Source: Chitinibacter sp. FCG-7 (GTDB lineage: Bacteria; Pseudomonadota; Gammaproteobacteria; Burkholderiales; Chitinibacteraceae). Taken from it: a stretch of 64,000 nt of DNA. The stretch covers positions 2,418,001 through 2,482,000 of the forward strand of contig NZ_CP157355.1 in assembly GCF_040047665.1 (NCBI RefSeq), in the 5' to 3' direction. The notes under the pieces were generated by a model, which searched no databases, had not been told where the DNA came from, and worked only from the letters and a program-made list of their open reading frames with translations. Numbering within the stretch: the first letter of the stretch is position 1; every line of letters begins with the position of its first letter. Below are positions 31,140 to 33,823 of this stretch, in pieces. The translations under genes were made by a program, and so were the position numbers.

Positions 31140-31558
31140 TCTGAGCTTGAAAATAATAAGGGGTGACAAAATGGGGTTTGTTGCGGGAACGCTGGTGCAC
31201 ACCAAGGACGGCTTGCGAGCGATCGAATCGCTGCAAGTCGGTGACTGGGTCTTGGCGAAGGATGAATCCGCTCAGGGTGATACGGCCTACAAACAGGTGC
31301 TGAAAACGCTTCGTTTTGAAGACAAGGAGATTTGGTATTTAGAATTTAAGCAGTTTAAAACTGGTGGGCAACTCCCAAGACCGTTTCAAGGATTACTGGC
31401 TTGCACTCGTAACCATCCATTCTGGGTACGTGGTCATTGCGATTATTCACTTGAGTTGAAATGCGATGTATTGCTTACGGATGAGGATTGGCCATGCAAT
31501 GTATGGCGGCGCGCGGATCTGCTGTATCCGGGAATGGTACTTGAATTGCATACGGGTG

Positions 31559-31563
31559 ATCTG
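31559..31563 (+). repeat. Left direct repeat flanking the IS (ATCTG)
   Basis: ATCTG, repeated at 32800-32804. Joining the flanks at one copy restores the Hint frame, so this is the likely target duplication. Only the CTG part may be the true duplication, because IS3 elements usually make 3-4 bp. Confidence 0.6.
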
Positions 31564-31569
31564 TTGTGG

Positions 31570-32391
31570 TCAACAATTCTCGGACAGTAAATTAAGTTGT
31601 CTTTCCTTAATGGCAGGGGCTAGCCCGCCATTGGCGGTGTGTGGCCGCTGCCAGTTGTAATACGCCATCAGGTAAACGCCAATATCCAGCCTGGCTTCTT
31701 CTGCAGATTCATACCCAGGCTTTGGTATCCATTCTGTTTTAAGACTGCGAAATAACCGCTCCATCGGCGCATTATCCCAACAGCACCCGCGCCGACTCAT
31801 GCTTTGCTGCATCTGGTAGCGCCATATCCGTTGCCTAAACAACCGGCTGCCATATTGGCTACCCTGATCCGAGTGAAATATCACTCCCAGTGGCTGGCCA
31901 CGCTGTTGCCAGGCATGATCTAACGCACGGCTGACTAGCTCGGCATCCGGGTGCTCACTAAGCGCCCAGCCCACCACGCAACGGGCAAACAAATCCAGCA
32001 CCACAGCCAGATAAATCCAGCGATTACCCGCCCAAATATAGGTGATATCGCCACACCAGACCTGATTCGGTTGCTCCGGATTAAACGCCCTCTGCAATAA
32101 GTGCGGAATGTCTGGACGTTCATCTTTGTGGACTTTGTAGCGATGCGCGCCTGGCTGTTTGCACTGCAAATCGGCTTCTCGCATGAGCTGGCGCACTTTA
32201 TATCGGCCAGCCGTAATGCCTTCAGCCGCCAGCATCCAGACTAGACTGCGGCTGCCTACCGCATTTCGGCTTTGCTTAAACAGATTGCGTACTTTGGCGC
32301 GCAACTCGATTCGTTCACGATCAATATGCTGGCGTCGATGCCGGTAATGGTAATAACTGGAACGGCAAATACCGAAGGTGCTGCAGACCAT
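31570..32391 (-). CDS. IS3-family transposase OrfB (DDE integrase)
   Basis: 273 residues from the ATG. The reading frame stays open upstream to about 32473, where a -1 shift from OrfA would join it. It has an HTH_21-like N-terminus and the rve core with catalytic residues in WCGDITYI (D), FHSDQGSQY (D) and NAPMERLFRSLK (E). The stop codon lies inside the left inverted repeat. The frameshifted OrfAB would be the active transposase. Confidence 0.92.
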   Translation of the reverse strand: MVCSTFGICRSSYYHYRHRRQHIDRERIELRAKVRNLFKQSRNAVGSRSLVWMLAAEGITAGRYKVRQLMREADLQCKQPGAHRYKVHKDERPDIPHLLQRAFNPEQPNQVWCGDITYIWAGNRWIYLAVVLDLFARCVVGWALSEHPDAELVSRALDHAWQQRGQPLGVIFHSDQGSQYGSRLFRQRIWRYQMQQSMSRRGCCWDNAPMERLFRSLKTEWIPKPGYESAEEARLDIGVYLMAYYNWQRPHTANGGLAPAIKERQLNLLSENC

Positions 32392-32420
32392 TTCTACGGG
32401 TTCATGCTCACTTAATTGGT

Positions 32421-32765
32421 CTACCAGCGCGTACGATTGAGTTCGTCCGCCATTAAGAGAGCTGTGGCTTTTTTTAACAGGGCTTTCTCCCGTTCCAGCC
32501 GATCAATGCGCGCTTCGAGCTCCTGAATGCGACGTTGGTCTGGCGTGAGTGCTTTGGCCTGCGGCGTGATACCCTGTCTTTCCTGTTTCAGCTGCTTAAT
32601 CCAGCGACGCAGTATGTTCTCGCCGACGTTCATCGCCTTACTGGCTTGTGACACCGTGTGGCCTTGATCGACGACCAGACTGGCGGCTTCGGCTTTAAAT
32701 TCCGGGGTAAATGTCCTGCGAACTTTGCTCATGAAACACCTCGTTAATGGTGGCGAGATTACCAC
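32421..32765 (-). CDS. IS3-family transposase OrfA
   Basis: Up to 114 residues. The family start is probably MSKVRRTFTPEFKAEAASLV, nine residues in. It has an N-terminal helix-turn-helix (HTVSQASKAMNVGENILRRW) and a C-terminal leucine-zipper region (IQELEARIDRLEREKALLKK). Seven A (plus-strand T at 32469-32475) within TTA AAA AAA GCC form a slippery site. A -1 shift there reads on into OrfB. Confidence 0.9.
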   Translation of the reverse strand: MVISPPLTRCFMSKVRRTFTPEFKAEAASLVVDQGHTVSQASKAMNVGENILRRWIKQLKQERQGITPQAKALTPDQRRIQELEARIDRLEREKALLKKATALLMADELNRTRW

Positions 32766-32799
32766 CTAAGTTGGTGTCCGAAATCATTGAACCACAACA

Positions 32800-32804
32800 A
32801 TCTG
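32800..32804 (+). repeat. Right direct repeat flanking the IS (ATCTG)
   Basis: Partner of 31559-31563. The Hint frame resumes directly after it at ATA GAG GTT. Confidence 0.6.
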
Positions 32805-33115
32805 ATAGAGGTTACTAAGTCGCTCTATGTCGCACAGACTGTCGATCAACATCTAGGTTTCCTTCAGGGCGATGGGATGCCTGAGGTTTGGCAACTTGAA
32901 AAAGATGGGCGCCTGATTGAGTTTACCTCGCAAGGGCCGGTTAACGATTTGCATGGAGAGACACCGTTAGTTCTCAATACCGCAATGGAAGATCTGGGTG
33001 ATGAGTTTTACTTCCCCACGTATCAGGCAACGGTTTACAACATCGAGGTTGAAGACTTCCACACTTACTATGTTGGCGAAATGGCTGTGCTGGTGCGAGA
33101 AATGGGAGCTAAAGA

Positions 33116-33823
33116 ATGACTGGTTTTGTTGCGGGGACTTTGGTGCACACCAAGGACGGTTTGCGCGCGATCGAGTCGCTGCAAGTCGGGGACTGGGTAT
33201 TGGCGAAGGATGAATCCGCTCAGGGTGATACGGCCTATAAGCGGGTACTGAAAACGCTTCGTTTTGAAGACAAGGAAATCTGGTATCTTCAATTCAGCTG
33301 GATGCGTGTAGGTGATAAACCGGAGCCGGAGGTATCTCGGAGCTTCTTAGCTTGTACAAGAAATCACCCATTATGGATGCGAGGATATGATTCTCGGCGT
33401 GAACTGTGGAATGAAGATGTGATGCAGCAAGAGGCACCTCGAGATGTGTGGATGCGTGCAGATTTGCTTGAACCGGGGATGATTCTCGAACTAGCTAATG
33501 GTGATCTGGTTGAAGTGACCAAGTCCTTGTATCTGGCGCAATCCGAGCAGCCCAACGTCGGCTTTATCCAGGGCAATGGTGTTGTCGGCGGGTGGCAATA
33601 TGAGCTAGACGGACGTTTGGTCGAATTTGGTGACCCGGGACCAATGACTGATATGGGAGCCTTCCCTGCGATGGTTGATTACACTGCGCTGGCAGGGACT
33701 GGCGACGAATTCGAGTTTCCGGTGTACCGTACGACGGTGTACAACATCGAGGTCGAAGACTTCCATACCTACTATGTCGGCGAAATGGGCGTTTGGGTAC
33801 AGAGCGATGTTGAGTCGCAATAA
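33116..33823 (+). CDS. Stand-alone Hint-domain protein, copy 2 (intact, lacks Cys1)
   Basis: 235 residues. Block A is GFVAGTLVHTKDGLRAIESL (3-22), block B is CTRNHPLW with the conserved T-x2-H (T81, H84), and the C-terminal block is VYNIEVEDFHTYYVGEMGVW (209-228). The residue before FVAGT, where Hint and intein domains have the nucleophilic Cys, is Gly3. The C-terminus ends VWVQS where a cleaving Hint has HN. No toxin, RHS or filament domain is attached. It overlaps copy 1 by 4 bases (ATGA), so the pair was translationally coupled. The first 57 residues or so are almost identical in both copies and the middle (about 58-200) diverges. The fold is clear; the function is unknown. Confidence 0.82.
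   Translation: MTGFVAGTLVHTKDGLRAIESLQVGDWVLAKDESAQGDTAYKRVLKTLRFEDKEIWYLQFSWMRVGDKPEPEVSRSFLACTRNHPLWMRGYDSRRELWNEDVMQQEAPRDVWMRADLLEPGMILELANGDLVEVTKSLYLAQSEQPNVGFIQGNGVVGGWQYELDGRLVEFGDPGPMTDMGAFPAMVDYTALAGTGDEFEFPVYRTTVYNIEVEDFHTYYVGEMGVWVQSDVESQ

What the first reader, a model, noticed from the sequence alone, without database searches (positions are those of the whole stretch)
31171..33823. Tandem stand-alone Hint-domain proteins that lack the catalytic first cysteine
Two adjacent, translationally coupled genes (copy 2 intact, copy 1 restorable) each encode just a 235-residue Hint-like protein. Hint and intein domains cleave using a Cys or Ser at position 1 of block A and usually a C-terminal His-Asn. 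Here the block reads GFVAGTLVHT right after the start codon, so position 1 is Gly in both copies. The ends read VLVRE and VWVQS rather than HN. Block B (T-x2-H) and the HTYYVGE block are kept. The first 57 residues are nearly identical between copies while the middle diverges. That pattern fits selection on a fold with a changing surface, not decay. They could be non-cleaving adaptors, decoys or inhibitors of cleaving Hint toxins elsewhere in the genome. The role is inference.
Basis: partly seen in the sequence, partly recalled or inferred. Interest (0 to 1): 0.75.

Follow-up and report, generated by a model that had tools for sequence, protein, structure and literature searches.

The report
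Stand-alone Hint proteins without scissors
A self-cutting protein domain normally built into large bacterial secreted proteins is found here as a separate gene that has lost the amino acids needed for cutting yet is still kept by selection, possibly as a decoy against rivals' weapons.

Summary

It is not a one-off. In 222 related domains residue 1 was Cys (156), Gly (60) or Ser (6). Gly1 domains sit near protein N-termini and mostly end just after the domain. A single Gly1 clade is rejected. In a thinned set only residue 1 separates the Gly1 and Cys1 classes after correction; the terminal Asn is next.

Omega is 0.13-0.21 in Chitinibacter and a median of 0.17 in Psychrobacter, where the genes form tandem arrays, often directly behind rtcR. 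No other PT-HINT match was found in this genome, so 'inhibitors of Hint toxins elsewhere in the genome' is not supported. Best reading: a maintained, non-cleaving Hint family, perhaps acting in trans on competitors' Hint-bearing proteins; that last step is inference (about 0.35). New variant of a known kind.

The parts
31112..31126 (.). Inverted repeat TGACA-N5-TGTCA overlapping a TTGACA hexamer (31111-31116), possible operator/promoter of the gene pair
   Evidence: Seen in the sequence; the two half-sites are also present upstream of the orthologues in G002 and G001 (alignment). The consensus promoter scan gave no support (1 site against 3.5 expected).
31171..31590 (+). Copy 1, 5' piece: Gly1 Hint head and start of the centre; the frame ends inside the IS element
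   Evidence: PF07591 E 2.3e-10
31570..32391 (-). IS3-family transposase ORF (integrase core) inside copy 1
   Evidence: PF00665 E 2e-28; transpos_IS3 300.1 bits, cut-off 160
32421..32765 (-). IS3-family first ORF (HTH_Tnp_1)
   Evidence: PF01527 E 1.5e-15; transpos_IS3 51.5 bits, under the cut-off of 160
32787..33119 (+). Frame that holds the 3' piece of copy 1 (block HTYYVGE, end VLVRE); ATGA overlap with copy 2
   Evidence: PT-HINT below cut-off, E 0.0017
33116..33823 (+). Copy 2: intact stand-alone Gly1 Hint protein, 235 aa
   Evidence: PF07591 54.1 bits, cut-off 27.7; model and fold search; omega
33828..33850 (.). Intrinsic-terminator-like hairpin on both strands, ending the transcription unit
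   Evidence: 5 terminator-like sites found in the region against a mean of 3.0 in shuffles; this one has 10 pairs

Best explanation
Copy 2 (and copy 1 before the IS element hit it) is a stand-alone Hint-fold protein of the PT-HINT / bacterial intein-like kind that has lost its chemistry but kept its fold. Such genes seem to arise repeatedly from Cys1 Hint domains of larger proteins: the domain gains its own start codon, drops most of what lies before and after it, and loses the nucleophile (Cys1 to Gly, sometimes Ser) and often the terminal Asn. It is then kept as a non-cleaving binding protein. Shown here by computation: predicted fold, missing catalytic residues, stand-alone architecture, Gly1 not a single clade, purifying selection, arrays of different centre types. 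Inferred: the direction Cys to Gly, that Gly1 abolishes cleavage, and that the protein acts in trans by pairing with the matching Cys1 Hint of a competitor's protein and spoiling its processing, so that an array is a repertoire of Hint-directed decoys, comparable to orphan immunity genes. My odds: about 0.85 for a maintained non-cleaving Hint, about 0.35 for the decoy step; the number given is for the whole statement.
For: Hint fold with Gly3 in the place of intein residue 1. In 222 domains residue 1 is Cys 156, Gly 60, Ser 6, nothing else, although Arg, Tyr, Phe and Trp are equally one step from a Cys codon. 54 of 60 Gly1 against 41 of 156 Cys1 domains start within 22 residues of the N-terminus. 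In a set of 41 and 41, only residue 1 separates the classes after correction; the terminal Asn comes next, 19 of 41 against 35 of 41, p 3.8e-4. One Gly1 clade rejected: p-AU 3e-75 for the domain, 1.4e-6 for the head alone. Omega 0.16, 0.21, 0.13 in Chitinibacter, median 0.17 over 105 Psychrobacter pairs. Closest Cys1 relatives are type-matched: 67% to the Hint in a 12,591-aa open frame of G016, 63% to one in G020 = Iodobacter violaceini. Arrays occur in genomes where no large Hint frame was found.
Against: No binding, cleavage or protection datum exists. The gene is dispensable: G003 and G004 have no match, copy 1 is broken, P0003 of C. tainanensis lacks the head. 13 or more of 20 short Cys1 stand-alones keep His-Asn, so being stand-alone does not by itself mean dead. 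19 of 60 Gly1 domains keep His-Asn. G027 holds both a Gly1 frame of 174 aa and a Cys1 Hint in a 7112-aa frame, so the two kinds can coexist. TxxH is somewhat less kept in Gly1 (50 of 60 against 149 of 156, p 0.008). Known immunity proteins bind the toxic domain, not the processing domain (recalled).
Confidence: 0.4

Rival explanations
1. Orphan remnants: leftovers of Hint-bearing genes that lost the parts before and after the domain; the genes drift, and loss of Cys1 and Asn is plain decay.
For: Copy 1 is broken by an IS element; P0003 lacks the head; 2 of 6 Chitinibacter genomes have no match; copies in L117 are also cut by an IS-like insertion.
Against: Omega 0.13-0.21 and median 0.17, maximum 0.39; residue 1 only Gly or Ser besides Cys; own start codons, shared upstream repeat and terminator; same locus kept in three Chitinibacter genomes.
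Confidence: 0.2
2. Repurposed cellular protein: the dead Hint fold serves as an adaptor or regulator with no link to toxins, for example in the RNA-repair (Rtc) setting of Psychrobacter.
For: 17 of 36 Psychrobacter loci have the rtcR C-terminal motif ending 15-30 nt before the Gly1 codon; Pfam RtcR in the two proteins tested. Arrays in genomes without large Hint frames.
Against: Other loci lie elsewhere; in this genome rtcR is about 0.74 Mb away; in L113 only a 140-aa ORF with the rtcR C-terminal motif is left while the Hint genes stay intact; patchy presence and plasmid carriage are unlike a core function.
Confidence: 0.2
3. Recombination reservoir: cassettes that can swap their Hint type into a full-length protein, as proposed for neisserial tpsC/mafB-CT cassettes.
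For: Shared heads around different centres within loci; uneven synonymous divergence between head and centre in several pairs; precedent in PMC4524018 (passages).
Against: No full-length recipient was found in the Chitinibacter carriers or in the three Psychrobacter genomes G200, G201, G202; no toxin part to donate; Gly1 would disable the recipient; constraint acts on the protein.
Confidence: 0.12
4. Still partly active: Hint chemistry persists by another route, for example Asn cyclisation where His-Asn is kept, or Ser1.
For: 19 of 60 Gly1 domains keep His-Asn and 50 of 60 keep TxxH; Ser1 forms exist.
Against: Copy 2 lacks both Cys1 and the terminal Asn. The class 3 intein route needs a Cys at block F position 4 (recalled); copy 2 has Ile there.
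Confidence: 0.08

Closest known systems
PT-HINT (Pfam PF07591), the Hint domain of polymorphic toxins, and bacterial intein-like (BIL) domains such as PDB 2LWY
   Different: No Cys1, no terminal His-Asn, no protein parts before or after the domain, about 100 residues more between block B and block F than in 2LWY
Neisserial mafB-CT genes with an N-terminal A-type BIL (Jamet et al. 2015, PMC4287609; passages and section 9 read)
   Same: Own start codon inside or at the BIL; the BIL lacks its first seven residues, so it too should lack the nucleophile; arrays of variants
   Different: mafB-CT genes carry a toxin domain and are followed by mafI; the genes here have neither
Tandem orphan immunity genes such as esaG (PMC9484751, passages)
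   Same: Strings of non-identical copies, also in strains without the cognate toxin; conserved blocks around variable parts; recombination between copies
   Different: Those bind a known toxin; here the gene is an inactive copy of the processing domain, and any protection is not shown
Cys1 Hint in a 12,591-aa open frame of G016
   Same: 67% identity to copy 2 over the whole domain, centre included
   Different: Cys1 and His-Asn present; embedded between long parts with cadherin-like and Ig-like repeats

Membership tests
Hint superfamily / PT-HINT domain | Profile match over the curated cut-off | tested here: met
   54.1 bits, cut-off 27.7
Hint superfamily / PT-HINT domain | Hint fold | tested here: met
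Self-processing Hint | Cys, Ser or Thr nucleophile at position 1 | tested here: not met
   Gly in both copies and in the G001 and G002 orthologues
Self-processing Hint | Block B TxxH | tested here: met
   TRNH in copy 2 and in the 5' piece of copy 1
Self-processing Hint | Terminal His-Asn of block G | tested here: not met
   VWVQS and VLVRE
Self-processing Hint | Self-cleavage | not testable with these tools
   Needs purified protein
mafB-CT / tpsC type toxin cassette | Toxin domain after the Hint | tested here: not met
   Copy 2 ends 8 residues after the block G end
mafB-CT / tpsC type toxin cassette | Immunity gene directly downstream | tested here: not met
   Next gene is a yfiH-like gene on the other strand (name recalled, no family search made)
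mafB-CT / tpsC type toxin cassette | Full-length recipient in the same genome | tested here: inconclusive
   None found with PF07591, TIGR03696 or copy 2, but PF07591 missed a known Gly1 gene in G205
Class 3 intein | Internal Cys at block F position 4 (definition recalled) | tested here: not met
   Block F reads VYNIEVED; position 4 is Ile
Orphan immunity gene | No cognate effector in the genome | tested here: inconclusive
   None found; same caveat as above
Orphan immunity gene | Binds and neutralises an effector | not testable with these tools
   Needs experiment
Known anti-phage defence protein | Match to a PADLOC model | tested here: not met
   0 families at E up to 1 for 7 of 7 proteins

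The most novel reading that the evidence does not exclude
Bacteria repeatedly turn the self-cutting Hint domain of rivals' secreted proteins into stand-alone, scissor-less decoys. Kept as arrays of different types, they protect cells that lack the toxin by pairing with the incoming toxin's Hint and blocking release of its toxic part: immunity aimed at the processing step instead of at the toxin domain.
Probability: 0.3. Interest if true: 0.87.

Novelty: new variant of a known kind. Interest (0 to 1): 0.6.

Why it matters
It indicates a recurrent class of genes in which an autoproteolytic domain becomes a maintained protein after losing its nucleophile and often its reacting Asn. If these act in trans, they would be immunity directed at toxin processing, and natural inhibitors of Hint/intein chemistry. 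Even if not, source names such as 'polymorphic toxin-type HINT domain-containing protein' (given to P0001) would mislead for genes of this kind.

Tried and rejected
Upstream frame giving Cys1: rejected, a stop lies just before copy 2's start and Gly stands in copy 1's extended frame. Hint toxin in the same genome: none found with PF07591, Rhs core TIGR03696 or copy 2 as query; other Hint or toxin families were not searched genome-wide, and PF07591 missed the known Gly1 gene L103 in its genome G205, so absence is not proven. Phage origin: no match in 50,697 phage records; 28 viral-contig loci were fetched but not analysed. Class 3 intein chemistry: no block F Cys. Defence models: none. Promoter scan: 1 site against 3.5 expected, not informative. 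A neighbour script missed most rtcR genes because it needed a second stop codon within 400 nt; one search replaced it. Tandem-fused Hint proteins: 14 of 193 proteins flagged, several only by loose pattern matches; used as a side observation. Plasmids: 13 of 72,556 records matched; two were opened.

Limits of the counts. One search listed 120 of 262 hits. One search was seeded with 22 Gly1 proteins, scored only the 8000 candidates sharing most words and listed 120 of 2502 hits; one search kept 80 of 226 matches; admit only lengths near the query. So the share of Gly1 is biased upward. The link of Gly1 with an N-terminal position shows already alone. In one search, P0001 and P0004 (Gly1 by eye) were misaligned and uncounted, and P0003 and P0060 lack the head. 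In one search, 233 domains fell to 222 after duplicates were removed; domains whose blocks my patterns could not read were dropped (in one search five of 79 loci gave nothing). The His-Asn count is by position and can be one residue out of register in a few rows (two Gly1 and one Cys1 row read 'NA'). Upstream lengths use the first possible start, so L095_1 (86) is probably too long. Pairs are not independent; that script stopped with an error after the omega results and 14 within-locus pairs (those of L117 and L118 were not reached). dS near 1 makes the Chitinibacter omegas rough. In one search my pattern could read residue 1 in 17 of the 27 new loci.

Literature. Searches (no paper; 15 of 124 listed; no paper) showed in their listings no paper on stand-alone Hint proteins lacking Cys1. 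Opened: PMC4524018, PMC7738311 and PMC9484751 (passages only), PMC4287609 (passages and section 9). Definitions of class 3 inteins, gene names ZIP and yfiH, and the view that immunity proteins bind toxin domains are recalled.

Full report
WHAT IS THERE. Copy 2 is an intact gene at 33116-33823 (+) for a 235-residue protein, MTGFVAGTLVHT...VWVQSDVESQ. TAA-AGA-ATG precedes it, so no longer frame exists. Copy 1 begins at 31171 with the same Gly1 head, has an AAGGGGTG sequence shortly before its ATG, and is split by an IS3-family element. Its second piece overlaps copy 2's start by ATGA. A terminator-like hairpin follows at 33828-33850. An inverted repeat TGACA-N5-TGTCA over a TTGACA hexamer upstream of copy 1 is also present before the orthologues in G001 and G002.

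WHERE IT SITS. The locus, between a ZIP-type transporter gene and a yfiH-like gene (names recalled), carries the Gly1 gene in G001 (Chitinibacter sp. GC72) and G002. In G003, G004 and G005 the same two flanking genes are neighbours, with gaps of about 57, 207 and 60 nt between the ORFs. G003 and G004 have no match at all; G005 has another Gly1 stand-alone gene elsewhere. The nearest Cys1 relatives are a Hint inside a 12,591-aa open frame of G016 (67% identity) and one in Iodobacter violaceini (63%, about 83-91 residues after the domain). After its Hint, the G016 frame has Ig-like and cadherin-like repeats and a weak matrixin match.

SELECTION. Nei-Gojobori omega is 0.16 (copy 2 with G002), 0.21 (copy 2 with G001) and 0.13 (G001 with G002), with dS 1.09, 0.96 and 0.65. 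For 31 Psychrobacter genes or gene parts from 17 loci, the median over 105 computable pairs (of 123 pairs at 60-98% identity over 200 or more residues) is 0.17 and the maximum 0.39. So these genes are in general constrained, although copy 1 and P0003 of C. tainanensis (135 aa, head missing) show that the gene can be lost.

A RECURRENT CLASS. In the first protein search (262 hits, 120 listed), aligned residue 1 was Cys in 96, Gly in 21 and unreadable in 4 of 121 rows including copy 2; two of those four are Gly1 by eye. Every counted Gly1 lay within 21 residues of the N-terminus; Cys1 positions ranged from 5 to 191 (Mann-Whitney p 4.5e-10). In the larger set of 222 domains (148 from proteins, 73 from loci, and copy 2) residue 1 was Cys 156, Gly 60, Ser 6. 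54 of 60 Gly1 against 41 of 156 Cys1 start within 22 residues of the N-terminus, and 46 of 60 against 20 of 156 also end within 30 residues after the domain. Of the nine Gly1 domains with longer tails, four (P0006, P0123, P0133 and L085_1) have a second Hint with Cys1 behind them; P0129 has one with Tyr at that place. Cys codons mutate in one step to Arg, Ser, Gly, Tyr, Phe and Trp; apart from that Tyr, only the small residues Gly and Ser were seen, and the five Ser codons read are AGC or AGT, one step from Cys; Gly codons are GGA 28, GGT 13, GGC 2. This looks like loss of the nucleophile with the fold preserved.

INDEPENDENT ORIGINS. On a FastTree tree the labels Gly and Cys need 28 changes (shuffled mean 53), and starred branches force at least 18 changes of the Gly label. 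In a thinned set of 41 Gly1 and 41 Cys1 domains one Gly1 clade is rejected, p-AU 3e-75, and also on the head alone (56 columns), p-AU 1.4e-6. Exchange of heads between genes would also scatter Gly1; the head-only test speaks against that as the whole explanation, but the columns are few and long branches are present. The direction Cys to Gly is assumed, since the tree is unrooted. Among 2111 residue tests in that set only residue 1 passes correction; the terminal Asn is next (19 of 41 against 35 of 41, p 3.8e-4). In the larger set His-Asn is kept in 19 of 60 Gly1, 13 of 20 Cys1 stand-alones and 115 of 136 longer Cys1 proteins, and TxxH in 50 of 60 Gly1 against 149 of 156 Cys1 (p 0.008). So some Gly1 proteins keep much of the site, and short Cys1 stand-alones exist.

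ARRAYS. Psychrobacter and other Moraxellaceae carry two or three such genes in tandem. Of 14 within-locus pairs printed, the first 60 residues are 55-92% identical; the middle is 14-27% identical in 12 pairs and 74% and 90% in the other two. Of 80 Psychrobacter genomes, 26 had a PT-HINT match. Seven of these (G208, G230, G236, G237, G240, G241, G267) had a match in a frame of 361-3122 aa and listed no frame of 230-345 aa; the other 19 had frames of 97-410 aa. Residue 1 was read in 17 of the new loci: Gly in 15, Cys in 2 (L216, L223). In this genome's family 19 of 43 genomes matched; the four Chitinibacter carriers hold only small frames, all Gly1 where read; eight other genomes hold frames of 1277-12,591 aa; one of them, G027, also holds a small Gly1 frame. 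PF07591 is not exhaustive: it missed the Gly1 gene of L103 in G205. A Gly1 stand-alone gene also lies on a mobilizable Acinetobacter variabilis plasmid.

CONTEXT. In 17 of 36 Psychrobacter loci checked, the rtcR C-terminal motif ends 15-30 nt before the Gly1 codon of the first Hint gene (Pfam RtcR in the two proteins tested). Loci are not all from different genomes, and short flanks limit the other 19. L113 keeps only a 140-aa ORF with that motif, and in this genome rtcR lies far from the window, so the link is regional.

MECHANISM. Shown by computation: a maintained Hint fold without its nucleophile and, in copy 2, without its terminal Asn. Inferred: that it does not cleave and that it binds in trans. 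Type-matched Cys1 relatives, repertoire-like arrays in genomes where no large Hint frame was found, and the likeness to orphan immunity arrays (PMC9484751, passages) make decoy immunity my leading guess, at about 0.35. A reservoir role is weakened by missing recipients, decay by the omegas; a toxin-independent cellular role stays open.

KNOWN PRECEDENT. Jamet et al. 2015 (PMC4287609, section 9) describe mafB-CT genes that start within the BIL, which lacks its first seven residues; those genes carry toxin domains and are followed by mafI. The class described here has neither toxin nor immunity gene at the window locus.

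Noticed in passing
L090, L091, L098, L099, L117 and other Psychrobacter loci: Gly1 Hint genes lie directly behind an rtcR-type gene (RNA-repair regulator), stop 15-30 nt before the Gly1 codon in 17 of 36 loci.
   Followed up: partly
G016:C1 about 3575350-3613100 (L034, L156, L157): A 12,591-aa open frame with Laminin_G_3 domains near its N-terminus, a Cys1 Hint, then cadherin-like and Ig-like repeats. 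A similar 12,872-aa open frame with a Cys1 Hint is in Acinetobacter proteolyticus, G206.
   Followed up: partly
P0006, P0123, P0133, P0161, L085: Tandem-fused Hint-Hint proteins that combine a Gly1 and a Cys1 domain; Gly1 is first in all but P0161.
   Followed up: partly
L106, L107, L108 (Psychrobacter sp. I-STPA strains): Stand-alone Hint genes with Ser1, several starting MSFVAGTLVHT, some next to Gly1 copies.
   Followed up: no
window 33116-33823 against G001 and G002: Synonymous divergence is lower in the first 60 and last 28 codons (pS 0.06-0.38) than in the middle (0.42-0.79); the Psychrobacter genes show no such pattern in their medians (0.52, 0.45, 0.56).
   Followed up: partly
L244 (Acinetobacter variabilis plasmid pTB2-2B-1): A Gly1 stand-alone Hint gene between a RelE/ParE-type toxin-antitoxin pair and an ISNCY transposase on a mobilizable plasmid.
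   Followed up: no
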